From Basidiobolus meristosporus CBS 931.73 (taxonomy: Eukaryota; Basidiobolomycota; Basidiobolomycetes; Basidiobolales; Basidiobolaceae), in the NCBI GenBank assembly GCA_002104905.1, contig MCFE01000322.1, forward strand, positions 31,379 to 95,378: a DNA stretch of 64,000 nucleotides. The letters run 5' to 3'. This document shows positions 1-64,000 of the stretch, in pieces (the stretch's first letter is position 1; each line of letters opens with the position of its first letter). The notes under the pieces are model-generated. The model was not told where the DNA came from, did no database searches, and saw nothing but the letters and a program-made list of their open reading frames with translations. The translations under genes were made by a program, and so were the position numbers.

Positions 1-1064
1 GTCTCAGTGTGGTCAAAACAGAGAACTTTCACGTACCGCTGATGATGCCACCTATCACTTCTGACGATGTTTGGTGATGGAATTCTTACGCCTTTTTTGT
101 ACCTGGCTTATTCAAACGAACCTCATATAAACTTGAATACTTTTCGACATCCCAACTTGAGCGGGCCAACTGCATTTACCATTAGTTGTGGCATCTCCCA
201 GCCCACAATCCCATCAAGAGTAGTACTAGGTAATGATTGATCTAAAAATACCTCCCTTCGTCTAGGAACGGAATATCACTCATCTGCTGCTTCTTCTATA
301 TTTACTTTTGTTGGCAAATCAAGGTAAAACTATCACATGGTTTCAGTCGCCGAGGATGATACTCTATCATCGCAATCAAGGTACTACACTACTGCAGGTT
401 ATGAGGCGACTGTGCTCAGTCTGTTGAGGTCCATGTTCGACCTATATGATAAACAGGAGTAACACCGGTCAACTATCCGTCCATTGTTGCCAAATTTGGC
501 AAAGAGTTCACGTACACTATTTACTCCATCCATAGGCAGTACATTGTCAAACGCTTCATTGAAGTAAATATAGCATTCTTCAAGGATCATAAATACTGAT
601 TTTCTGATGTCCTATGTTGGGAGTGGTACAGAAACAACAAGAAAATTTTACTTCCAACCGCTCAGCAAAGCCATTTACCCCTTATGGATGCTACTATATT
701 TACGAATTGGCTTAGTGAATCCAGTGGACCAATGTGCAGGGATTTATAGCTTGTAGGGCGCACCGTATCCAGTTTATTATAGCGCCATTTCACTCGATTT
801 CCTTTGCGGCTGATTCGGCTACGTCACCAATAGCCTTAATGCTGGGAGGCAAACCTCGTCATTTGACGGAGTCAAAATTTTCAGGGCGAAGTAGCCACGG
901 CAAAACATGGAGCGAGAGTCGGCGTATTCAATATACCATTATCCACTTCATATGCTTTTGATTGTACTAATGATATTCACGATGGAATCGCCTCATATAG
1001 TCATATCACAAATGCTTGTGTCATAGGCGCAAGTAAATGATTCGATAAGCGCACCTTGGCTCAG
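1..1064. other. Intergenic, no gene seen
   Basis: Only short open frames without recognisable motifs occur here. The right end is the promoter of the secreted-protein gene that starts at 1125. Confidence 0.5.
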
Positions 1065-1072
1065 TATATAAG
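1065..1072 (+). promoter_or_regulatory. TATA box
   Basis: TATATAAG lies about 55 nt upstream of the ATG at 1125, a normal distance for a short fungal 5' leader. It supports that start codon. Confidence 0.55.
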
Positions 1073-1124
1073 TGCTGCGCATCTACTTCAACAATTCAGA
1101 TAGGATTCAACAACACCTCCTAGC

Positions 1125-1754
1125 ATGCACCTCATCAACTCTGCTCTTCTGGTCCTTGGTAGTGCTCTATTGAGCAGCGCATGCGAGATGGACTGTAGAA
1201 ACGGCATCAATAAGGCCTTCGCTGATAATTACTCCCCGATCATCGCAAATCATATGGCCGTTTTAGCTGAGGATATCAAGTCCTCATTCGCAGCAGAGGT
1301 GGAGAATACCCCAGAACTCGGAAAAGAGATTGAGAGCAGCATCTCTGCACTGCAAACCACCATTTTGAGCCGACTCCCTAAAGCCGTCGATCGTCAAGTT
1401 TTCACCAAGTATCGCGGCCCTTGCCCTCAAGACATTGAGGGATGTCCCAATTATAATTGCTCATCACTCTGTGGCTCACCTGGATCAGTAATTTACTTTA
1501 TCGATGACGCTCTTCAACTAGCCAATGCCGGTGTTGTGGGTCAAGTCCAAAAGGACACCGAGCCCGGTAGAATCTTCCACAAGTCAATCCGTAGTGCTAT
1601 CACGGCTAGAGTCGGTAACAGCCAGGTCGACGTTGAATCCAAGTTGAAGCCTATCTTGCGGGACCTGCACGATAGAGCAACCACTATGTGCGACGAATCG
1701 TGCTACAACAAATGGACCTCCCAAATCATCGAGCTGCTTAAAACTTTCGATTAG
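1125..1754 (+). CDS. Secreted cysteine-containing protein, function unknown
   Basis: This is an intronless 209-aa protein. Residues 1-19 form a typical signal peptide (hydrophobic LLVLGSALLSSA, then a Cys), so the product is probably exported. The mature part has about ten cysteines in loose pairs (for example CEMDC near the N terminus, a Cys-rich stretch around residues 100-117 with CPNYNC, and CDESC near residue 190), suggesting disulfides. Between them are amphipathic helical stretches. No transmembrane segment or GPI signal is seen. A TATA box sits about 55 nt upstream of the ATG and no other ATG intervenes. I do not recognise the family. It could be a surface or effector-like protein, but nothing in the sequence shows its role. 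It is likely a real gene because of the signal peptide, the paired cysteines and the promoter. Confidence 0.75.
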   Translation: MHLINSALLVLGSALLSSACEMDCRNGINKAFADNYSPIIANHMAVLAEDIKSSFAAEVENTPELGKEIESSISALQTTILSRLPKAVDRQVFTKYRGPCPQDIEGCPNYNCSSLCGSPGSVIYFIDDALQLANAGVVGQVQKDTEPGRIFHKSIRSAITARVGNSQVDVESKLKPILRDLHDRATTMCDESCYNKWTSQIIELLKTFD

Positions 1755-3093
1755 ACAGATATTCGATGAACCAGCCTTTTTGATCACAATGTGTAAAATT
1801 CTCCAATTGACTCATAGTAATAATAGCCTCTATGGATGCTTTCCCATTACGCCATCCATACGACACAATAAATATTTCCCATCATAATCGTAGGAGCTGG
1901 CTGATGATACATGTATATACGAGTTCATATCAGAGCTTAGTGGGGTTGAATATGGCTGGATTTGGCACGTGGCTGATTTGAGAGCACGAAAGCATCGAGT
2001 GGGGAGTGAGATTTGGTGAAATTGCATCACCCGGTGGCTTCGCCAACTACGGGGCCAGGCAAGAGCAGCTTGCTAAGAAACTGGCACTAATATGTTGCTC
2101 AGAGATGCATTGGATGGGGTATGGCGACAAATTAACCACGTGCGATGTATTCAGGTATCGTTCTCCAAGGTAACATGCTGCAAATGCTATGGTAGTAAGC
2201 ATCACATTAGTATTGACAAATCAATATCCATGAACTACTTGGCCCATTGCTGTAGTGCTACCCCCCAGTCGTGATCGGTGAGGAGGGCCTCCATGCAGCG
2301 TAGGACTTCCGTGGGTTCAATAGGATGAGACAAATTGGATTGTATTAACCAACAGCGTACCATTGGGCGGCGATCTGCATCTGCATTGTGTTTTCCTGGA
2401 GCTTTTGGATACCTGCTGTCCAGGCTATTCACATATTAATTTCGCGTTCAGAATACCATTGCTCCGTAGAGTGATGTTCACAGCTACCAAATAAAGGTAA
2501 GATCAGAAACATCCAGTCATCACCCCCGTAACGGAACCGATTGAGTAACGTTACTCTAACAAATGAATTATACCACGGACAATAGATCTCCGATTGACAG
2601 ACTGATACCATCTGTTAGGGTGCGGCCATCAATGTGATCTCCAAGATACCACTCAAACAAGAGATGCATGAATGCGATGACAAGAATTCCATTGCTAGAT
2701 TCATTTTGAAATACATTGAGTTAACTCGTAAGCCCTACCTATAACAATATACTCCACGCTGTATGATCCCCCATCGTTTGCAAATTGAGATCGTGCTACC
2801 ACACAAAAGAGTGATTGCAGCATGATGCTACTGCCGCCCACTCTGAGAAACCATCTGATACCACCCTCATATTGCTTCGTTTCAACTTGACAATTACATT
2901 TTGATGATGATCCAGGTGAGTGGGGATTGGGTGGCATCCGTCCGTCACATTATCTAGAACCAACAACCACACTATATATTCTCCTGACGTCTCTGAGAAC
3001 AACCCACCTTTACATTCTTATAAGCTCCACCCTAAACATATTCCTTCTCATCTGCTAAACGCCAATATCGACCAACGCACCACTGAGAATAAT
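1755..3093. other. Intergenic, no gene seen
   Basis: Several 60-80 codon open frames on both strands lack motifs and start context. I see no gene. Confidence 0.45.
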
Positions 3094-4039
3094 ATGGATT
3101 ACCAGAGGCGACGTACACCCTTTTCAACATGGCTTGGCCTGAACGACTTCGACTTATCTATACCTGTGACTTCGAATTTTGTACCTTCATATGTTCTAAT
3201 ATTCACCAGGGCGATTTCTCTCATATATACGCTCACGGTGGCGATTACTAACTTCGTGATTAATATTGGTGATGTATGGGAAGGGTTCTTCGTTTATTTC
3301 ACTGATCTATCGTTTCTGGGACTTATAGCATACTTCATGGTGAGCATATTATTCGCCAGTACCCTCCGTGGATCGATGGTAATCTTGGATATTATAGGTT
3401 TCGAGCTACCATTCAGTACGGTACTATCGCGGCTCAATCCAGTTCTTGCATTCATCCTGGATAGCCCACTCCAAGTTCCTCCGCTTCATATACTGGCTGC
3501 TCTACGAAACCGTAGTAGTATTCCACGTAGTAGTACCGATCATATACTGGACACTTATTTTCACCCCATCAAACCGCAGTACCCTGCTGTTGTGGGTTAA
3601 TGGCTCGATACACGGGAGCGATTTTTTCTTCATGATGGTTGAGATGATCCTTGGCAGGTGGACGTTGAAATGGAGCCACCTACCATTTGTGCTATTCTTC
3701 CCGATCTTATACATGTGTCTGGCATTCCTCAATTATGCTATGTAAGTGAGCTTGTTTGAATCTCGTACGGTTATTCTCTGTCGACGACTAACCTGCAATC
3801 CTTGTCCGGAAAGAAACGGCTATTTCGTGTATGGGTTCCTTGATTGGTACGCCAGAAAGCCAGGATACGTTGCTCTGATCTATTTGGGAGTGGCGCTGTT
3901 TTTCATCATAGTGTTTTCGGCCATGCTCTATATTCACAAGCTAAGAGATCGCATTGGAATCAAAAGAAGACCAGAACTGGCAGAGCGTGAAGGGTTGAGC
4001 TCAAACCCGCTGCAAATGATCCAAGTGGACACCGTTTAA
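3094..4039 (+). CDS. Rolling-stone / AIG1-like multi-pass membrane protein
   Basis: Three exons (3094-3339, 3398-3741, 3814-4039) join in frame to a 271-aa protein. Introns are 58 and 72 nt with GTGAGC and GTAAGT donors; the second has a CTAAC branch site. The protein has about six hydrophobic segments. The C-terminal half reads like the rolling-stone (ROST) / FAR-17a-AIG1 group of integral membrane proteins: a conserved His in IHGSDFFFMMVEMILGR, then TLKWSHLPFVLFFPILYM, then a short loop with YGFLDWYARKPG before the last helix and a basic tail. ROST proteins act in muscle cell fusion in flies, and AIG1 relatives are serine/threonine hydrolases of fatty-acid esters of hydroxy fatty acids. Whether this one is an enzyme is not known. 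It probably resides in an endomembrane or the plasma membrane. The start is the first ATG of exon 1; the open frame continues upstream without another convincing ATG. Confidence 0.75.
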
Positions 4040-46387: not shown

Positions 46388-47345
46388 ATGTCTACCACCA
46401 CTATTATTGGAATTTTTCCCTCTGTTGAAAATTTGGATGGATCTAACTACAAAGTGTGGAAGGTGAAGATGATGATGCTGCTACAGGAAAGAGGCCTTTG
46501 GATATTGTCATGGGAGAAGTATGCCCTTCTAAAAATGTGGGAGAGGATCCTTAAAGTACCAGAAGAAAGAAGGTGCCTTCAACTGTATTTGCTCTAAAGT
46601 CAAAAAAAATTTCTAATTCAGTGCTCAAGAGTAAAAATGGCAAAGAATGCCTGGAAGGCTTCAGAAGACATATACTGGTCATGTTCAGCTGCAAAGAAAA
46701 TGTATCTTAGACAAAAATTCTTCACTACTAGGATGCTACCAGGAGAAGAAATGAGAAATCTAAATACCAGAACTACCCTGCTGGTGGGTGAGTTGGAATA
46801 TGTGGGTACACTAATTACTCATGAGGATGTGATAGTTACAATCCTAGATAGCATGACAAACACGTTTCAGGGCCTTGTGTTAGCCCTAGAGTCCAGATCT
46901 GAATATTTGACCATAAATTACATACATGGAAGGCACCTGGATGAAGAATTAAGAAAATCAAGTGCCAATATGAAGGAAGAAGTAAATGCTTTGATAAGCA
47001 ATGCTAAACAATAAAGGAGGTACTCAAAACCCTTTTAAGGCAATACCAACCTGTTTTGCAACTACTGCAATATGAAAGGACACACATCAGACTGGTGCCT
47101 TAAGAAGAGAGATAATCAGTTTAAAGCCTGATTATGAAAATGTTGCAACAACTGAAGATAGACTATTCATATCTGCCCTAAATATGATCATAAACAAGGA
47201 TTCTCAGACAAGGCATATTGACTCTGGAGCATCTCAACACTTTACATACTAAAAAGAACTATTTGCCCAATATGAAGAAATTTCAATCAAGAAGGTTTTT
47301 GTGGCTAACAATAGAGCACTTGATGCAGTTGGCAAAGGAACTAGC
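46388..47345 (+). pseudogene. Copia gag-protease remnant, plus strand
   Basis: Gag starts MSTTTIIGIFPSVENLDGSN, then YKVWKVKMMMLLQERGLW, typical of Copia Gag. The frame is broken near 46597 and resumes around 46637 with a UBN2-type Gag domain (LRQKFFTTRMLPGEEM). Next come a CCHC zinc knuckle (CNYCNMKGHTSDWC) and the aspartic protease motif DSGASQHFT. Frameshifts and stops make it inactive. Pol is missing after the protease. Confidence 0.85.
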
Positions 47346-47360
47346 CAAGTAAACCTTGGG

Positions 47361-48380
47361 CTAACTTAGGGTGAGAGTCAAGGTACTTCTATTAATAGAG
47401 AACTTTATTCCTAAGTTGTATCTAAGCTCTTCTAGAGTGGACATTTGAACTCCTTGGATATGCTGGACTTTATATATAGGATCACACACACATGGTGCTA
47501 ATAGAACTAGATTTGCTCTATCTGACTTAATGTAGAGACTATAGGTAGCAGTTCTACTTTGGAGACCCAGGGACTCCAAATAAGAATCTATCTTGCAATT
47601 CCAGACTTGTAAAGGTTCTTTCTGGTGTGTAAAGTGTGAGATGCTCCAGAGCCAATGTACCATGGCAGAGGATCCCTGTAGGTGGTTATATTTAGTGCAG
47701 ATATAAGTAGTATATGTTCTGTTGTTGCAACATTTCCATTTCCAGGCTTGCTTTGATGATTACCTCTCTTTTTGAGCCACTGATCAGATGTAGATGCTTT
47801 CCTTTTGCAGTAGCTGCCTAAGCACTTTTCACTTCCTTCTTATTGCCTTTGATTTCCAAGTTCCTCATCCAGGAGCCTTCCATATATTGCTGATACAAGG
47901 CACTGAAGCTCTTCTGTCAGGCTATTCAGGAAGGCTACTGTCATATGTTCATCAACAGTTTGTATGTCCACAGATTCCATCTCATCACCCAACACAGTAA
48001 TACTGTCAATTAGAGTTTTCATTTCTATTCCTGAGAGCATATTTGCAGTAAAGAGCTTTGTCTACAATGCATTTTCTTAGCAGCTTAGCATAACTATTAG
48101 GTGTCTTCTAATGCTTGTAAGGCATTCTTTGCTATTGTGGCTCATGTGCAGTGAGTCAGAACTTATCTGTAACATTAAGATATGAGCAGTAGAAGACACC
48201 TTGTTCTTTTTCAAGTACTTCAAGGCTTTGTCTCCTACACATTGAGGAGTACCCTCTTCTTCCATAACCTGATCCAAAGGCCTCTTTCCTGTAGCAGCAT
48301 CTCATCCTCACCTTTCAGACTCAGTAGTTGGTTCCTTTCAGCTTTTCAGCAGAGGGCAAAGCTCCAGTAATAGCAGTAGT
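47361..48380 (-). pseudogene. Copia gag-protease remnant, minus strand
   Basis: This is a mirror-image partner of the plus-strand remnant. Gag pieces include LDEELGNQRQ and VDIQTVDEHMTVAFLNSL; the protease region includes ISHFTHQKEPL. A minus-strand LTR of about 345 bp lies at 48419-48763. The two remnants meet tail to tail near 47345-47361, both ending in the protease. Confidence 0.75.
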
Positions 48381-48418
48381 AGATACTCCACAGAGTAGCA
48401 GCTTGGTGCACATAACCT

Positions 48419-50213: not shown

Positions 50214-51010
50214 TAAACAAAAAGGCTCAGTAAACTTTATTTATATTTTTCTGATCAAGTTGAACTAGTAAGTGCCAAGCATCTAGACTAATTGAAATCT
50301 GCTGGGGTATTGATAGGTGTATAAGATAAAAGAGAAGTTGCATCATTCATCAGCTGATGTTTTGGCAACTGCTAAGTGGTTGGATAGATCTCAGATGACT
50401 ATTCACTTGGAAAGGCTTAACAGATCAGTTGAGGATGTAATGACCACATGAAAATAGATCAGGTGTGACAGCTAAAAGTAGATTCCAGGAGGTGATAAAA
50501 TAAACCATAACTGGGATTAGTTATGTTTGGGTTAGGGGAGAATCAGTTAGGGTACTAGATTCTCTAACAGATTAAAATAGGCTAAGTTTTAAATGTTGAT
50601 GCACAACACACACTAATCCAAAAGAATTGGCAAGCTATATTTATACTTTTCTGGTCAACATGAACTAGTAAGCACTGGAAACAGGATTACTGATTGAAAT
50701 TGATTCAGGTATTTATAGGCAGGCAAGATAAATGAAAATGGCATCATCATTCAGCTGCTATCTTGTTCACTTCTAAGAGATTGATAGATCTCAGATGACT
50801 AATCCCCTGGAAAGGCTTGACAGATTAGATGGTATTGTAATGATAATATGAAAATGGATTAGGTGTGATTGCTAAAATAGATTCTGAGATGGGATAAAAG
50901 AAATAATGACTGAGATTAGTTATACTTAAATTAGGGAAAGTCAGTTAGGGTACTAGATTTTTTAACTTAGTAAGATTGGATAAGTTTTGAGTGTTGATGC
51001 ACAACAGTGT
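50206..51010. repeat. Tandem pair of about 400-bp repeats (B, B')
   Basis: Two copies, roughly 50206-50607 and 50608-51010, both end in TGTTGATGCACAACA and share CAGTTAGGGTACTAGATT and AACTAGTAAG. They have the length and palindromic ends of LTRs. Confidence 0.6.
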
Positions 51011-56229: not shown

Positions 56230-56671
56230 CCACACCAAGGGCAAGGAAAGTACACAGTATGGTGAGATCACTGTTTTTACACCAACAAGTGGTTATAAAA
56301 GGGTTAGATTGTGGCTATTATAGTAAGGGCTAGAAAAGGCTAGAAGAGCAGGGGGCTAGGGGGGATGAAAGTTGCAATATAGTGAAATCTCTATTTATTT
56401 ATCATCAGTATTCAAGTAAGCTAAGCAAATTTAAGGTTATTCTTAGGGTTGGGGGATGATAATCAGCAAAGGGTGAAATACTTATTCAAATTATATTCAA
56501 TGAAGCCAAGTTGGAATAAGGATATTCAGAATGCAGAAAGCCTTCAAGATAAACTTAGACCTTACTAATTCCCAAATATCCTCAATTTCAAAGTCTAGAG
56601 GAGAATGTAGTAAGACAGCCAGTTACTGTAGTATTTCAGGGGGAAGTCTGTGATTTGAAGGGGAGGAGAGT
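56230..56671 (-). mobile_element. Oldest, heavily decayed retroelement tails
   Basis: At least three degenerate copies of the shared element 3' end are visible: near 56236-56275, at 56356 (CTAGGGGGGATGAAAGTTG... GTGAAATCTCTATTTAT) and at 56443 (TTAGGGTTGGGGGATGATAA... GGTGAAATACTTATT). Stem-loop and polyadenylation-like parts are recognisable but mutated. Confidence 0.55.
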
Positions 56672-57198
56672 TTAGGCGGAGGAAAGTCACCTAGTGGTGA
56701 AATCTTTATTTACTTATGACAAGTATCTAAAGAAGCCAAGTTAATCTGAAGTTATTCCTAGAAAGCTAGGTCTGAGAGATATCTTCCTGGTAAGCCAGAT
56801 CTGAGAGTTGAGAAGCTGAGTGGTACTATATTTCCTAGTGAGCTAGGTCTGAGAGAGGTTTCCTGGAAAGCCAGGCCTGAGAAGTGAGAATCTGAATATA
56901 TCTGAGCTAAGTTATACTGGTTAGCAGTAGCTGAATTGTGGCTGGAATGGCCAGTAGACTGGGGGAAATGATAGGAATTTCTGGGCAATCACTGGACAAA
57001 TTTACTAGGCAAATTTGGCCAATTAGCATTTCAAGGATCTCAGCCAATCAGAGCCGTTACTTTGCCCAATGGTTGATCAAACCATCTCCCAATGAGTACA
57101 CACCAACTTATTGATCAAATTCTGCTGGATGCAGGATTTGAACCCACAACCATTGGTATGGAAGGGTTAGGGATAACCACAAGGCTAAGTGTTCTTGG
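56672..57198 (-). mobile_element. Telomere-associated SINE, apparently full length
   Basis: About 527 bp. The 3' end (low coordinates) carries the shared tail: TTAGGCGGAGGAAAGTCACC, then GGTGAAATCTTTATTTAC. The body has several AGCTAGGTCTGAGAG-type repeats. The 5' end, read on the minus strand, holds tRNA-like pol III boxes: box A TAGCCTTGTGG (57177-57187) and box B GGTTCAAATCC (57134-57144). No ORF is present. A 5'-truncated second copy lies at 61170-61544. It probably relies on the enzyme of the neighbouring ORF2 element, because the tails match. Confidence 0.75.
57134..57187 (-). promoter_or_regulatory. tRNA-like RNA polymerase III promoter (boxes A and B)
   Basis: Box B GGTTCAAATCC differs from the consensus GGTTCGAATCC at one position, and box A TAGCCTTGTGG differs from TRGCNNAGTGG at one position. 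They are 32 nt apart, within the tRNA range. No acceptor-stem pairing is evident, so this is a tRNA-derived head rather than a tRNA gene. Confidence 0.7.
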
Positions 57199-57246
57199 TT
57201 AGGGGAGGGAAAGTCACTGAGGTGGTGAAATCTGTATTTGGGTTAG
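57199..57246 (-). mobile_element. Very short truncated element copy plus telomere-like spacer
   Basis: Only about 42 bp of the shared 3' tail (TTAGGGGAGGGAAAGTCACT...) remain. They are followed by GGGTTAG, after which the next element begins. Confidence 0.6.
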
Positions 57247-57309
57247 TTAGGGGGGAGACAGTCACCAACAGGTGAAATCTTTATTTCAGTTGAAACAAAG
57301 AAGCCAGCG

Positions 57310-60078
57310 CTACTGTTGTAGCTTTGATACAAGAGTGTGTAGCTGAGGGGAATTTGTAGGTAAGTTAATAAGAAGTGATGATAGCTCTTCAGTGCTCAAG
57401 ACACTGTTCAGTGGGAAGGGGGGTAGCAAGAGAGGTAAGAATGACTTGTGAACAACATTAATGAGGGGAATGTGATAAGGATTGATATTCATCATAAATG
57501 GAGTGTGCTGCTGCAGATATTGCTGCCAAAGGTCTGTCAAGTACTTCAGGTAGGCCAGCTTGGGTTTTTCTGACTGCAGAATAAATTGAGCAAACTTCTT
57601 GACTTCAGGATCTCCAAGTATAGTTCTCCAGCAGGAGCCAGGTGTAGTGAGGTGTGTTCTCCTTTATGCCTTAATTAGTGGGTTGTGGCAGTTGTGAAGT
57701 CTGAGGTATAATCTGGTTCTAAGGTAGAGAAGTCTGATCTTATAGGGCATAAACCCAAAAGCACCAAGAATAGCATGTCTGTAGGGGCATTCAGGCAGAT
57801 GAGGCACCAAGGAGGTAATGCACCATACTGCAAACTTGTCAAGCTTAGTGCAGTCTCTAGAAGTAAGAGAGAGAAGTGGTAAGCCAAATTCCAGGACAGG
57901 GAAGACAAACTGCTTGAGTAGAAGCAGGCAGCTGGGAGCTGAAGTTGTAGGAGGAGTAACTGCCAGTAGTTTGTGGAGTGCCTGTCTTGCCAGGATAATT
58001 CTCTTCTTCAGGTGTGCTCCAGAGTCTAGTCCAGTAGGAAGGAAAGGAAAGCCAAGATATGTAGCAGAAACCTGAGCAGGTAGAGTGGAGTTCTCCAAGT
58101 TGATGGGAGAGCCCAAAGGTACTGTCTTTGCAATGGAAAGCTGGAGATTATTCTTCTGCAGATACAGGTGGATGGTCTGGGAGTCTTGTTGCACATTGGA
58201 GGAGGATATTCTGATGTCATCAGCAAAGAGAGTAACCAGGCAGTCAGCTGAGAGTCTTGGGAAATCATTCAGGAAGATGGCAAACAGTATAGGACCAAGC
58301 ACAGAGCCTTGAACCACTCCATTAGGAACTGAGAACACAGCTGATTGCTCACTTGGGTGCAGAATTCTTGCTTGTGGATCCAGAAACAGAGACCTGAAAA
58401 GGAGGGTGAGAGAGGTACTGGAGAAGCATTGCAACTTGGACCAAAGCAGATTTCTGTCAACTGAATCAAAGGCCTTAGTAATATCAAACAGAACTGAGGG
58501 ATACTTGCACTGGAGAGAGTGATCTTGGCTAAGTATGACTGCATATTCCAAGGAGAGGCCAGGAACAAAGCCAAACTGTGCAGGATGAAACTTGAGGGAG
58601 TCAGAGTAGAGCTCCTGAGCAAGCAGAAGCTCAAACACCTTTCTGCAGGTGGGCAGCAGAGATATTGGCCTGTAGGAGCTAGGATCCAGGTGATTTCCTT
58701 TACCCTTGTACAGTGGCAGAACATTTGCAAAGGACCATTCCTCAGGAGTAGAAAGCTGGGCTGAGCAATGCTGAAACAGTGGAAGCAGAAGTGCAGACAT
58801 GGCCTTGGTACTAGTCTTCAGAAGCTCATAGGAGATTGTGTCCACACCTGGAGCAGTAGAGTTGGGAAGCCTCTTGAGCACATTATGGATTCTCCTTTGA
58901 TCAAGTGCAAGTGGGATGGGCAGAGTCTTGAAGTCAGGATGAAAGCCAGGAGTTGAGTACTGCTTTGTAGAGAAGAAGATGTTAGTCAGCTGTTCTGTTG
59001 AAGGTAACTTCCTGGAAGAGGGCCTCATTGCCCTGTAGAGTCTTGATACTGTTCTTGTTATAGAGTTGGAAGATTGCAGAGGCAAAGAACTCATAATATG
59101 ATCCCAGAGCTGAGTATGCAGAGTGTGGTGAAATGCCTTGGAGTGGTGTATTGCTGTCAGGAGGAGTTTCTCTGTTTTTGGGTTAGGGAAACTCAGGTAG
59201 CTTTGTTGCAGGGCTGAAACAATGGATTCCCATTTTCTTGAGGTAACAGCAGTAGTCTTGCATGGCAGTGAGAGGGAGGCAGACACCAGAATCAGATGCT
59301 TCACAAAGAGCCAGGCATAGTTGAGATCATCTGGCAGAGAAAGTAGCAAACTGGCAAGCTTCAAGTAGTTCCCAAAGTCTTTCTTCTGATTCTTGGTAGC
59401 TTTGTGGGTGAGCACAGTAAGTTTTGGCAGCTTCTTCTTCACAACTGGTTGCATAGAAAGGGACCAGGCTGGGTGGTCAGAGGCTCTGAAGGATCCTAGC
59501 TCAGCTCCAGAGAATTGCTTAACTTCATTCACAAAGTAGAGGGCAGCAGCAGAAGGGCAGATCCAGTCAACACATCTTTTCTCAGATTGAGCACCTAGTG
59601 CTAGCAGATGGCTTTCTCTCAGGAAGTTCAGTAGGAATGTAGACCTTGGCTTCATTCTTGCAGTCAGAGTAGTCTTGTTCTCAGTATGGGGAATGTTGAG
59701 ATCTCCAAGCAAGATAATAGGTGTTGATATAGATTGCTGGTATTGCTGAACATTCTGGCATATAACTTGCACTTCCTGAAGGGCAAGACTTGGAGGCAGA
59801 TAGCAGAGCACCAGACTGATAGTTGGCAACTGGAGTGCAGCACAGTAAGGGGAGTAAAGAGGAACACAGAGCTGAGGAGTATTGATGGTAGAAGAGATGA
59901 AGCAGATAGAGGAGGTATTCTTTGTTCTAGGAGTAGAAAAGCAATATAGATTAGTCAAAAGTATAGAGGGTAGCTGGACATCAATCAAACACAGGAGGGA
60001 GAATCTTGAAAGAAGTCTCTCTAGAGTTGGTCTTGATGGCTGTATGCTGTTGCAGTTAAGCAACAGAACTTCAGGTAG
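57310..60078 (-). pseudogene. ORF2: endonuclease-like and reverse transcriptase, one premature stop
   Basis: About 920 codons. The N-terminal region resembles the AP-type endonuclease of LINEs (LNCNSI, GDLNIP, CVDWICPS, RASDHPAW), but where a catalytic QE is usual the chain reads LIDVQ. The reverse transcriptase contains STAPGVDTISYELLK, YKGKGNHLDPSSYRPISLL, FDITKAFDSVDR, PNGVVQGSVLGPILF and the active site LFADDI. The C-terminal part is a helical region without RNase H. There is no ATG at the 5' end: the frame opens right after the ORF1 TGA, with the first internal Met beyond GDLNIP. A single in-frame TAA at 57664-57666 separates the last 118 codons (TDLWQQYLQQ region), so this copy is probably inactive. 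The protein would copy element RNA at the chromosome end. Confidence 0.85.
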
Positions 60079-61169
60079 TCAGGCAGAGGTTGTAGCTTCT
60101 TCAGAGGCAGCATTGACAATGTGACCTGCAGAGTCCCAGAGCTCTTCAAATGGTGCATCACTTAAGTCAGCAAGGAGGGAAATGGCATGGTTCTTGAGGA
60201 AGTATGCCACATCATAGGAGGGGGCTTGTCTCTTGATGGCAGCAAAGAAAGACAGAATGGCAACATGGGCTGGAGGCTTGTTGAACAGTAGAGAGTCAGA
60301 GGATTCAGATTCTTCAGGCACTATCTTGAAGTCAGTTTTCAGCCAGTTAAGGTTCTTCTCCACAAAGGCAACAAATGGGTCAGCAATGTTTTGGTCTAGG
60401 ATAACCTCCAGAATCTTCCCTTTTCTCCAGGCCAGGTTGACAATTCTTGAGAGCTGAATATTGCATGCCTTGAGTGCTTTCCTGATGTTGGAAATGGGAG
60501 TCCAGGGAACTTGCTTCAAGTACACCACAGTCCAGGTAGAAGCTGGTGGTAGGTTTGCTGGGGGCTTGTAAGTCCTTCTGTGTGGCAATGGAGCTGCAGT
60601 AGTCAGATTGGAGTCCACATTCTCAGTAGAGGGTTTTCTTGATGTGTCTTGCAGAATGGTACTGGAGCAGGATGTGCTGATAATTCTTGCTAGAACCTTG
60701 CCTGCATAAGTCTGAGGTATAGCTGAGGTGACTGTAGAGGTGGTGGCAGCTGGTGCAGGTGGAGAGGCAGAAACTGAAGCAGGAACTGAGGTCACCTGGG
60801 AGAAGGCAGTGGAAGCAGGTTTTCTGGGAGGATCAGAGTTCACTATCCAGTTGTTCTGTAAAACACTGGAGTAGCTTTTCTGTGGAACAGGATCTTGCTC
60901 TTGAACAGGAACAGAAGCAGCAGGCTGGGGCTGAGCAGTAGTGGTAAGGCAGTGGCACTCCAAGGAAGCTTTTTGCAAGGCATCTCTGGCAGTTTTCAGG
61001 GCAGTATTGGCTTCATTCTTGAGCTTCTTGCATTGGGCATCCAGTCTCTTGTTTTCAATAGTCAGGGCAGTATTGGCAGCCTCTAAATCTGCAATTCTCT
61101 TCTCAATTGCAAGGAATCTCTGAAGAAATGCATCAGTAGAAGTGCTGGCATCTGGGAGAGCAGTGGCAC
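60079..61169 (-). pseudogene. ORF1 (Gag-like, coiled coil), 5'-truncated
   Basis: The frame is open from the junction at 61169 to TGA at 60079 (about 360 codons) with no start ATG at its left edge, so the N terminus is missing. It begins with a coiled coil (AIEKRIADLEAANTALTIEN) and continues with a long Ser/Thr/Pro/Gln-rich linker. It ends with a conserved domain (TYKPPANLPPASTWTVVYL, then GKILEVILDQNIADPF) that is also found in the ORF1 at 61851-62579. It is probably the RNA-binding Gag-like partner. Its stop codon context is TGA CTA, and ORF2 continues in the same frame. Confidence 0.75.
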
Positions 61170-61544
61170 TTAGGGGGGAGGACAGTCACCAAGTGGTGAA
61201 ATCTTTATTTACTTATGACAAGTATCTAAAGAAGCCAAGTTAATCTGATGTAATTCCTAGAAAGCTAGGTCTGAGAGATATCTTCCTGGTAAGCCAGGTC
61301 TGAGAGTTGAGAAGCTGAGTGGTACTGTATTTCCTAGTTAGCTAGGTCTTAGAGAGGTTTCCTGGAAAGCCAGGCCTGAGAAGTGAGAATCTGAATATAT
61401 CTGAGCTAAGTTATACTGGTTTGCGGTAGCTGAATTGTGGCCGGAATGGCCAGTAGACTGGGGGAACTGAGATGAATTTCTGGGCGATCACTGGCCAAGT
61501 TTACTAGGCAAATCTGGCCAATTAGCATTTCAAGGATTTCAGCC
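61170..61544 (-). mobile_element. Telomere-associated SINE, 5'-truncated copy
   Basis: About 375 bp closely matching the SINE at 56672-57198, starting TTAGGGGGGAGGACAGTCACC. It stops after AGCATTTCAAGGATTTCAG, before the tRNA-like head. It abuts ORF1 of the neighbouring element on the left and another element tail on the right. Confidence 0.75.
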
Positions 61545-61724
61545 TTAGGGGAGGGAAAGTCACCAAGGTAGGTGAAATCTTTATTTGAATGCAGACAAGT
61601 CTAACTACAAATAAAGAAGCCAGCTGGGAATAGAAGATTCCCAAAGTAAACACTAAGTTGAATATGAATAAATCTAAGCTAAAGTTAAGGCAGTATCCCA
61701 GAGTACACTGGAGTTCAGGTTCAT
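61545..61724 (-). mobile_element. ORF1-only family element, short 5'-truncated copy
   Basis: About 180 bp. It has the same tail (TTAGGGGAGGGAAAGTCACC, then GGTGAAATCTTTATTTG) and the same 3' UTR as the next element, reaching a few codons into the ORF1 C terminus before truncation. It shows independently that this 3' UTR belongs directly to ORF1 in this family. Confidence 0.7.
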
Positions 61725-61850
61725 GGGGAGGGAAAGTCACCAAAGTAGGTGAAATCTTTATTTGATTTCAGACAAGTCTAACAACAAATAAAGAAGCCAG
61801 CTGGGAATAGAAAATTCCCAAAGTAAACACTAAGTTGAATATGAATAAAT

Positions 61851-62579
61851 CTAAGCTAAAGTTAAGGCAGTATCCCAAAGTACACTGGAGTTCAGGTTCA
61901 TGGGGGAGTGAAGTAGATAAGCTTGAGAGATATAATAGTCTTTGAGGAAGTGGGTAACAGCAGGTGAAGGGGAGTTTTTGATAAGTGAAGTGAATCTTGA
62001 GAGCAGAGATTCCTCTAATGAGAAGGTCTTGTAAACTGGAGAATCAGGAAACTCTTGAAAGGCATGGTCAGTAGGTTCCCAGTAAAACTGGTCAGAGACA
62101 TTTTGAGAGAACTCTTTAGCAATACTTTTGTCAAGTACTACCTCCAGAGTGTGATGGTTGATAAATCTCATGTTAACAATCTTGGATAAATTGTAACCTT
62201 GTTGCTTGAGATACATCCTATGCTCAGATATAGGAATAAACTCCACATTGGCAAAGTAGCAGACAGCCCAGTCAGTAGCAGGAGGTAAATCAGAAGTGGC
62301 AGGAAACTTTCTTTTAGTCTTGGGAGGAGCAGCAGGATGTCTTGAGGAAGCAGGAACAGGCTTTTTGACAGCTTCAGAGTAGGAAGAGTGAGCAAGAGCA
62401 GATGATTCTTGGGGAGTCTTGTTGACAGGAAGAGTTGGCACAGGGACAATAGATTCTTGCAGATCAGAGAAGGCAGAAAACAGCTTTTGAACTTGTTTCT
62501 TGAGTAAAGCATTTTCAGCTTCAACAAGTGCAAGCCTTTCCTCAAGGAAGGAAATCTGAAGGGAATGGAGTGAAGGCAT
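61851..62579 (-). CDS. ORF1 protein of the ORF1-only element
   Basis: 242 aa, uninterrupted, with an ATG start (MPSLHSLQISFLEERLALVE). Residues 8-45 form a coiled coil rich in Glu, Leu and Ala. A Pro/Ser/Lys-rich basic linker follows (KTKRKFPATSDLPPATDW). The C-terminal domain (YNLSKIVNMRFINHHTLEVV, then LDKSIAKEF) aligns by eye with the ORF1 C-terminal domain at 60079-60600. Both share a W-x-V/C-Y-F/L opening, the S-[KR]-IVN motif, LEV-[VI]-LD and an LWD near the end. There is no zinc knuckle or RRM that I can see. It is probably RNA-binding or multimerising. As an intact frame it may still be expressed. Confidence 0.8.
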   Translation of the reverse strand: MPSLHSLQISFLEERLALVEAENALLKKQVQKLFSAFSDLQESIVPVPTLPVNKTPQESSALAHSSYSEAVKKPVPASSRHPAAPPKTKRKFPATSDLPPATDWAVCYFANVEFIPISEHRMYLKQQGYNLSKIVNMRFINHHTLEVVLDKSIAKEFSQNVSDQFYWEPTDHAFQEFPDSPVYKTFSLEESLLSRFTSLIKNSPSPAVTHFLKDYYISQAYLLHSPMNLNSSVLWDTALTLA

Positions 62580-62620
62580 AAGAAATAAGAAGAAGAGGGT
62601 AGGATGGGGTGGGTGGGTGG

Positions 62621-63524
62621 GAAAATTAGCAGGGAGAAGAGAAGGAAGGAGCAAAAATTCCAGAAGTCAGAATTTATAGATGGATGGACAAGGGTAGATG
62701 GATGGATTATTCCTGGGTTAGGAAAATTAGCAGGGAGAAGAGAAGGAAGGAGCAAAAATTCCAGAAGTCAGAATTTATAGATGGATGGACAAGGGTAGAT
62801 GGATGGATTATTCCTGGGTTAGGAAAATTAGCAGGGAGAAGAGAAGGAAGGAGCAAAAATTCCAGAAGTCAGAATTTATAGATGGATGGACAAGGGTAGA
62901 TGGATGGATTATTCCTGGGTTAGGAAAATTAGCAGGGAGAAGAGAAGGAAGGAGCAAAAATTCCAGAAGTCAGAATTTATAGATGGATGGACAAGGGTAG
63001 ATGGATGGATTATTCCTGGGTTAGGAAAATTAGCAGGGAGAAGAGAAGGAAGGAGCAAAAATTCCAGAAGTCAGAATTTATAGATGGATGGACAAGGGTA
63101 GATGGATGGATTATTCCTGGGTTAGGAAAATTAGCAGGGAGAAGAGAAGGAAGGAGCAAAAATTCCAGAAGTCAGAATTTATAGATGGATGGACAAGGGT
63201 AGATGGATGGATTATTCCTGGGTTAGGAAAATTAGCAGGGAGAAGAGAAGGAAGGAGCAAAAATTCCAGAAGTCAGAATTTATAGATGGATGGACAAGGG
63301 TAGATGGATGGATTATTCCTGGGTTAGGAAAATTAGCAGGGAGAAGAGAAGGAAGGAGCAAAAATTCCAGAAGTCAGAATTTATAGATGGATGGATTATT
63401 CCTGGGTTAGGAAAATTAGCAGGGAGAAGAGGAGGAAGGAGCAAAAATTCCAGAAGTCAGAATTTATAGATGGATGGACAAGGGTAGATGGATGGATTAT
63501 TCCTGGGTTAGGAAAATTAGCAGG
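62621..63524 (+). repeat. 101-bp tandem repeat array, about nine units
   Basis: Units begin GAAAATTAGCAGGGAGAAGAG at 62621, 62722, 62823, 62924, 63025, 63126, 63227 and 63328, then 63411 (an 18-bp deletion shortens one unit) and 63512 (partial). Units are almost identical, indicating recent expansion or homogenisation. Each unit contains GGGTTAGG, a partial telomere motif, plus GATGGATGG. It lies in the 5' region of the ORF1-only element and could supply a promoter in each unit. Confidence 0.9.
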
Positions 63525-63778
63525 GTTAGGGGGGGAGACAGTCACCAACAGGTGAATCTTTATTTCAGTTGAAACAAAGAAGCCAGCGCTACTGTTGTAG
63601 CTTTGATACAAGAGTGTGTAGCTGAGGAGAATTTGTAGGTAAGCTAATAAGAAGTGATGATAGTTCTTCAGTGCTCAAGACACTGTTCAGTGGGAAGGGG
63701 GGTAGCAAGAGAGGTAAGAATGACTTGTGAACAACATTAATGAGGGGAATGTGATAAGGATTGATATTCATCATAAAT
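63525..63778 (-). mobile_element. Terminal 5'-truncated element copy, telomere-capped
   Basis: 254 bp almost identical to 57247-57501, the 3' end of the ORF1+ORF2 element, with one base lost in GGTGAAATC. It begins after CAGG at GTTAGGGGGGGAGACAG and is interrupted at CATAAATGG, where (GGGTTA)n starts. It still encodes the last part of ORF2 as a fragment. Confidence 0.85.
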
Positions 63779-64000
63779 GGGTTAGGGTTAGGGTTAGGGT
63801 TAGGGTTAGGGTTAGGGTTAGGGTTAGGGTTAGGGTTAGGGTTAGGGTTAGGGTTAGGGTTAGGGTTAGGGTTAGGGTTAGGGTTAGGGTTAGGTTAGGG
63901 TTAGGGTTAGGGTTAGGGTTAGGGTTAGGGTTAGGGTTAGGGTTAGGGTTAGGGTTAGGGTTAGGGTTAGGGTTAGGGTTAGGGTTAGGGTTAGGGTTAG
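63779..64000 (+). repeat. Telomere repeat (TTAGGG)n
   Basis: About 37 uninterrupted TTAGGG units run to the window edge on the G-rich strand, as expected at a right-hand chromosome end. One variant unit (GGTTAG, a G missing) lies near 63890. This is the telomerase-type repeat used by most fungi and animals. Confidence 0.97.

What the first reader, a model, noticed from the sequence alone, without database searches (positions are those of the whole stretch)
56230..64000. Head-to-tail retroelement array built onto a TTAGGG chromosome end
Sequence shows eight or more element copies between 56.2 kb and the telomere, all on the minus strand. In each the 3' end is centromere-proximal and the 5' end telomere-proximal, and most start at TTAGGGG on the plus strand. 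That polarity is expected if the 3' OH of the G-rich telomere strand primes reverse transcription of an RNA whose 3' end is ...CCCCUAA. Drosophila HeT-A/TART/TAHRE have this polarity but replace telomerase. Bombyx TRAS/SART and Magnaporthe MoTeR sit in telomere repeats. Here a telomerase-type cap is still present outside, and three element types share the site. The priming mechanism is inference.
Basis: partly seen in the sequence, partly recalled or inferred. Interest (0 to 1): 0.92.

Follow-up and report, generated by a model that had tools for sequence, protein, structure and literature searches.

The report
Telomere-building retroelement family in Basidiobolus
Chromosome ends of the fungus Basidiobolus carry stacked copies of a LINE-type retroelement and its short dependants, all pointing the same way under an ordinary TTAGGG cap, as if self-copying elements and telomerase take turns extending the same ends.

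Summary
Nine same-orientation element copies fill window 56.38-63.78 kb under a TTAGGG cap. The genome is Basidiobolus meristosporus CBS 931.73, or a strain with the identical marker protein. Of the matches listed on contigs over 40 kb, 293 of 296 lie within 30 kb of the contig end that their 5' end faces (most lengths interpolated). In 198 kb read near the ends of 32 contigs, 102 of 102 3' tails share one orientation. The driver is a LINE with an APE-fold endonuclease; a second LINE, ORF1-only elements and a SINE with Pol III-type boxes share its 3' tail. Perfect-phase telomeric tracts between elements are 0-26 nt, terminal caps 152-238 nt. Truncated 5' ends join telomeric DNA with excess microhomology. 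Most likely the RNA's ...CCCCUAA end is copied onto a short TTAGGG end and telomerase then re-caps. Priming by the chromosome end is inferred; nicking plus tract contraction is not excluded. Polarity and an outer telomerase cap are already known from MoTeR and FoTeR. New here: APE-type driver, SINE, shared tail, early-diverging fungus.

The parts
56382..56446 (-). decayed 3'-tail remnant of an old copy
   Evidence: 75% over 65 bp to a SINE 3' end, E 8e-6
56451..56673 (-). E-type element, 5'-truncated, old
   Evidence: 81-82% to copies on C518 and C45
56680..57198 (-). SINE-like element, full length (type B)
   Evidence: 95% over all 520 bp of the natural copy on C897; in that copy a B box lies at +55 and an A-box-like motif at +12
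57204..57245 (-). 42-bp 3'-tail fragment of a C/D-type element
   Evidence: 90% to the D-type LINE tail
57256..61168 (-). LINE copy (type A), 5'-truncated inside ORF1
   Evidence: 98.7% to nt 1-3914 of a 4,658-bp natural copy on C897, counted from its 3' end
57664..60078 (-). ORF2: APE-fold endonuclease plus reverse transcriptase; this copy stops after 804 codons, 50 of 56 copies scored have 922
   Evidence: RVT_1 E 1.6e-24; fold matches to LINE-1, R1Bm EN and TRAS1 EN; copy comparison
60079..61168 (-). ORF1, C-terminal part only (N-terminus lost by truncation)
   Evidence: open frame; 35% identity over 161 columns to the ORF1-only protein
61179..61544 (-). SINE-like element, 5'-truncated
   Evidence: 97.5% to 367 of 520 bp
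61550..61728 (-). C-type element, truncated to 179 bp
   Evidence: 99%
61727..63525 (-). ORF1-only element (type C)
   Evidence: 97.5% over 1,020 bp to a copy on C466, then its tandem repeats
61851..62666 (-). 271-codon ORF1-type frame: coiled coil plus RRM-like domain (modest model)
   Evidence: 146 matching stretches in the genome
62620..63525 (-). 101-bp tandem repeats in the 5' part of the ORF1-only element
   Evidence: TRF
63536..63780 (-). LINE copy (type A), truncated to 246 bp, directly under the telomere
   Evidence: 98.4%
63779..64000 (+). terminal (TTAGGG)n cap
   Evidence: TRF period 6, 37.2 copies

Best explanation
This is a telomere-restricted non-LTR retrotransposon system. Autonomous LINEs (A, and a second line D) make ORF1 and an APE-endonuclease/RT protein; ORF1-only elements (C, E) and a Pol III-type SINE (B) ride on it through a shared 3' tail: TCACC-loop-GGTGA motif, AATAAA, and a 3' terminus ...CCCC(n)UAA complementary to TTAGGGG. 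The RNA's C-rich 3' end anneals to a short TTAGGG 3' end at an eroded or just-healed chromosome end, and cDNA synthesis adds the element with its 3' end inward and its 5' end outward, often truncated. Telomerase then seeds TTAGGG repeats on the new end from 1-3 nt of homology, and the cycle repeats. Shown: anatomy, copy number, confinement of the listed matches to contig ends, polarity, junctions, short tracts, microhomology, no nesting in the stretches read, and a telomerase RNA-binding-domain gene. Inferred: use of the chromosome's 3' end as primer, mobilisation in trans, telomerase as the healer, and the RNA's exact 3' end.
Against: No reads, transcripts or biochemistry. The EN domain keeps the other motifs and may well nick DNA. 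Short interstitial tracts could be the contracted remains of longer ones; MoTeR tracts of over 3 repeats are prone to breakage (PMC7367193). 10 of 53 truncated ends have extra non-telomeric bases at the joint, both window LINE copies among them. Some neighbours are tandem duplicates (L061: about 120-bp copies cut at nearly the same base), so recombination also builds arrays. Three listed matches do not fit: an ORF2 on C726 in the opposite sense, an ORF1-only match about 98 kb inside C558, and one about 34 kb from the end of C757. 13 of 31 contig ends reached carry no cap. Divergence does not rise significantly with distance from the end (A: rho 0.19, p 0.20; B: rho 0.12, p 0.46).
Confidence: 0.62

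Rival explanations
1. Endonuclease-dependent insertion inside the telomere tract, as in TRAS/SART or as proposed for MoTeR and FoTeR: the APE domain nicks TTAGGG DNA, the nick primes reverse transcription, and the distal repeats stay outside. Interstitial tracts later contract.
For: An APE/R1/TRAS1-like EN fold; telomeric phase on both sides of elements.
Against: The EN catalytic Glu is replaced by Asp. SART1 needs at least three repeats (PMC7265360, passages); 96 of 99 junctions here hold fewer than three in perfect phase.
Confidence: 0.27
2. The arrays grow mainly by recombination (break-induced replication, unequal exchange) of a few founders, with little new retrotransposition.
For: Near-identical copies (98-99%) and local tandem duplicates (L061).
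Against: Varied truncation points (53 distinct truncated junctions) and different proximal sequence next to most A-type 3' ends; recombination alone does not recreate an exact 3' end next to many unrelated sequences.
Confidence: 0.08
3. Assembly artefact.
For: Only one assembly could be searched; telomeric runs are almost all on one strand of the contigs (345 to 6 by pattern), which is odd; no reads were seen.
Against: Same architecture on dozens of contigs with different neighbours; a partial B. ranarum protein 49% identical to the ORF1 exists.
Confidence: 0.02

Closest known systems
MoTeR1/MoTeR2 (Magnaporthe) and FoTeR (Fusarium)
   Same: fungal telomere-restricted non-LTR elements, TTAGGG tracts at the element borders; for MoTeR also head-to-tail arrays, 5' ends toward the chromosome end, a non-autonomous partner (MoTeR2) and 5' truncations with seeded de novo telomeres (PMC7367193, passages; PMC12857005, sections 3, 16, 18, 19)
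   Different: CRE/SLACS-related RT with a restriction-enzyme-like endonuclease; MoTeR2 shares MoTeR1's 5' 860 bp and 3' 77 bp rather than being SINE-like; MoTeR tracts run from half a repeat to more than 20; here an N-terminal APE endonuclease, and a SINE and ORF1-only elements that share the tail
Drosophila HeT-A/TART/TAHRE
   Same: polarity expected of end addition; Gag-only plus RT-bearing partners; truncated copies stacked at ends (recalled; PMC5537684 seen only in a search listing)
   Different: Drosophila lacks telomerase; here TTAGGG caps and a TERT domain are present; no SINE partner is recalled there
Bombyx TRAS/SART
   Same: APE endonuclease fold; telomere-repeat target (1wdu match; PMC4700185 and PMC7265360, passages)
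   Different: they insert inside (TTAGG)n, SART with poly(A) tails, and are reported as full length at telomeres; here truncated, no poly(A) seen at the junctions read, short tracts
Athena Penelope-like elements of bdelloid rotifers
   Same: telomere-associated retroelements (PMC10088271, passages); telomere-like RNA ends are recalled
   Different: Penelope-type RT; not compared here

Membership tests
non-LTR retrotransposon (LINE), APE-endonuclease type | reverse transcriptase of LINE type | tested here: met
non-LTR retrotransposon (LINE), APE-endonuclease type | N-terminal APE-like endonuclease fold | tested here: met
non-LTR retrotransposon (LINE), APE-endonuclease type | 5' truncation and a fixed 3' end | tested here: met
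MoTeR/FoTeR/CRE clade | C-terminal restriction-enzyme-like endonuclease | tested here: not met
   CCHC and RHD/N motifs of the published pattern (PMC12857005 section 16): 0 of 6 proteins P0001, P0004-P0008 hold either; CCHC also absent from 3 of 3 full 922-aa frames; endonuclease is N-terminal and APE-like
MoTeR/FoTeR/CRE clade | 5' ends toward the chromosome end, TTAGGG between copies (MoTeR) | tested here: met
Drosophila HeT-A/TART/TAHRE | replaces telomerase | tested here: not met
   TTAGGG caps and a telomerase RNA-binding domain
Drosophila HeT-A/TART/TAHRE | direct addition to the chromosome's 3' end | tested here: inconclusive
   consistent tracts, polarity and no nesting; mechanism not shown
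TRAS/SART (R1 clade) | R1-clade RT phylogeny | not tested
   no labelled reference set was at hand
TRAS/SART (R1 clade) | insertion inside long telomere tracts | tested here: not met
   96 of 99 junctions have 14 or fewer perfect-phase nt before the GGG; later contraction not excluded
SINE | short, non-coding, 3' tail shared with a LINE | tested here: met
   520-bp copy, tail motif shared
SINE | internal Pol III A and B boxes | tested here: met
   B box GGTTCAAATCC at +55, A-box-like at +12; 2 of 3,000 shuffles have any B box, 0 at +46 to +76
SINE | tRNA or 5S/7SL-derived head | tested here: inconclusive
   no Rfam tRNA match up to E 10, ARAGORN none
SINE | Pol III transcription | not testable with these tools
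   no expression data

The most novel reading that the evidence does not exclude
Two reverse transcriptases share one chromosome end: a LINE enzyme that copies LINE, ORF1-only and SINE RNAs ending in CCCCUAA straight onto short TTAGGG 3' ends, as telomerase copies its own template, and telomerase that re-caps the product. The SINE would be a Pol III transcript whose only landing site seen here is the telomere, and the LINE endonuclease, with its catalytic Glu changed to Asp, would be partly dispensable.
Probability: 0.45. Interest if true: 0.8.

Novelty: new variant of a known kind. Interest (0 to 1): 0.64.

Why it matters
The fungal telomere-restricted retroelements in the papers read here (MoTeR, FoTeR, Cnl1) are placed with CRE-type enzymes. 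An independent APE-type lineage in an early-diverging fungus, with ORF1-only and SINE partners, looks like a convergent version of the Drosophila HeT-A/TART arrangement in a genome that still has telomeric repeats and a telomerase domain. It offers a setting in which end addition by a LINE and by telomerase can be compared on the same chromosome ends, and a test of how a chromosome could pass from telomerase to retroelement maintenance.

Full report
Identity of the sequence. The window is the right end of contig C561 in an 89.0-Mb, 1,311-contig assembly. A glycerol-3-phosphate dehydrogenase in the window is 84% identical to a Basidiobolus ranarum protein and 80% to one of B. meristosporus CBS 931.73. 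The latter protein occurs at 100% on contig C443 of the same assembly. So the genome is B. meristosporus CBS 931.73 or a strain with the same protein.

What is in the window. A TTAGGG cap occupies 63779-64000. Inside it lie nine adjoining element copies, all with the 3' end toward the centromere, starting at 56382; no hit is found before 56 kb. Two are LINE type A (3.9 kb and 246 bp), two are a SINE-like element (one full length), one is an ORF1-only element with 101-bp tandem repeats in its 5' part, one is a truncated copy of the same type, and three are older or shorter pieces. The two innermost copies are the most diverged (75-82%); the others are 90-99% identical to copies elsewhere. The window's LINE copy is not complete: ORF1 lacks its N-terminus and ORF2 stops at codon 804, while 50 of 56 copies scored have a 922-codon frame. 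A natural copy on C897 is 4,658 bp long; its ORF1 region lies in two overlapping frames there. Whether that is biology or an assembly error was not tested.

Enzyme. ORF2 (model pLDDT 78.4) has an N-terminal domain that superposes on R1Bm endonuclease, TRAS1 endonuclease and APE1, and an RT that superposes on LINE-1 and R2. In an alignment of 13 proteins, the GDxN, DW/LD and DH residues are invariant, but the catalytic Glu of the QET-type motif is Asp in the three family members; it is Glu in the ten other LINEs, which I picked from the 86 hits. That this Glu is catalytic is recalled from LINE-1 and APE1. Whether the domain cuts DNA is unknown. REL motifs are absent.

Where copies lie. Contig numbers follow the text order of size ranks: 34 known lengths fall monotonically with rank, so lengths of other contigs were interpolated. 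On contigs over 40 kb, 46 of 47 ORF2 matches, 81 of 81 D-tail matches, 118 of 120 ORF1-only matches and 48 of 48 SINE matches lie within 30 kb of the contig end that their 5' end faces. These are listed matches only: 56 scored ORF2 candidates of 1,183, the first 100 of 168 D tails, 146 ORF1-only rows and 66 SINE rows, from 40 of 406 candidates. The rest of each list lies on contigs under 40 kb, where distance says little. The exceptions are C726 (opposite sense), C558 (about 98 kb inside) and C757 (about 34 kb from the end). C424 and C979 carry copies at both ends in mirrored orientation.

Junctions. In stretches from 32 contigs, 198 kb, 102 of 102 tails have one sense, and none of 41 truncated neighbours resumes beyond the next element. 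Before the element's own GGG, 96 of 99 measured junctions have 14 or fewer perfect-phase telomeric nucleotides, median 5, maximum 26. Allowing degenerate units and counting the GGG the median is 10 and the maximum 48. Of 125 junctions, 80 mapped to references A, B or C and gave 21 distinct intact 5' ends and 53 distinct truncated ones. 43 of the 53 pass straight into telomeric sequence with a mean of 1.91 shared bases against 0.84 for random joins, 0 of 5,000 resamples as high; 10 of 53 have other bases at the joint. Of the 12 junctions with fewer than three telomeric nucleotides before the GGG, 10 keep an A or TA there.

How it probably works. The element ends in a C run followed by TAA on its sense strand, so its RNA could pair with a TTAGGGG 3' end; extension of that end gives the observed polarity. 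The short tracts argue that the acceptor is a short or freshly seeded telomere rather than a random place in a long one. The microhomology resembles the 1-4-nt seeds of de novo telomeres in Magnaporthe (19 of 24 events there; PMC7367193, passages), and a telomerase RNA-binding domain is present (one of its two stretches spans a stop, perhaps an intron). I therefore favour alternating LINE addition and telomerase capping. Nicking inside the tract followed by contraction remains possible.

Against known systems. MoTeR already shows telomere-restricted elements with this polarity under a telomerase cap, MoTeR2 is a non-autonomous partner, and FoTeR is a close parallel (PMC7367193, passages; PMC12857005, four sections). 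They use CRE-type enzymes. TRAS and SART share the endonuclease fold but insert in long tracts (PMC4700185, PMC7265360, passages). HeT-A/TART offer the Gag-only/RT-bearing partnership but without telomerase. The search listings on Basidiobolus showed nothing on its telomere elements by title: 1 paper, the first 15 of 4,295, 7 listed of 9. One paper, on frogs, holds any of six phrases for a telomeric or subtelomeric SINE. That library lacks most subscription papers.

Noticed in passing
G000:C880:173109-173423 and 190657-191352: The telomerase RNA-binding-domain gene lies about 17 kb inside an ORF1-only match of the same contig: the TERT gene itself appears to be subtelomeric.
   Followed up: no
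whole assembly: Telomeric runs are almost all on the forward strand of the contigs (345 to 6 by pattern), so contigs seem to have been oriented telomere-right; the reason is unknown.
   Followed up: no
G000:C726:56456-58867: Sole listed ORF2 copy on a contig over 40 kb that faces away from its nearer contig end, with one internal stop; flanks could not be fetched.
   Followed up: partly
window 46400-48400: By eye, decayed gag-like coding remnants of a copia-type element in both orientations within the low-GC stretch 44-51 kb. Recalled resemblance, not tested.
   Followed up: no
window 50520-50960: Two isolated TTAGGG-like spots in a degenerate repeat about 6 kb inside the array; none of the element references matched there.
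   Followed up: partly
C897 natural LINE copy, 5' end; SINE +27: The LINE 5' region holds a tandemly doubled unit of roughly 100 bp and an internal CCCTAACCCTAA; the SINE head holds CCCTAACCC at +27. Telomere-complement motifs also occur inside the elements.
   Followed up: no
P0004-P0008: Five unnamed relatives of ORF2 at 49-83% identity on short contigs, suggesting kin in other Basidiobolus or environmental samples.
   Followed up: partly
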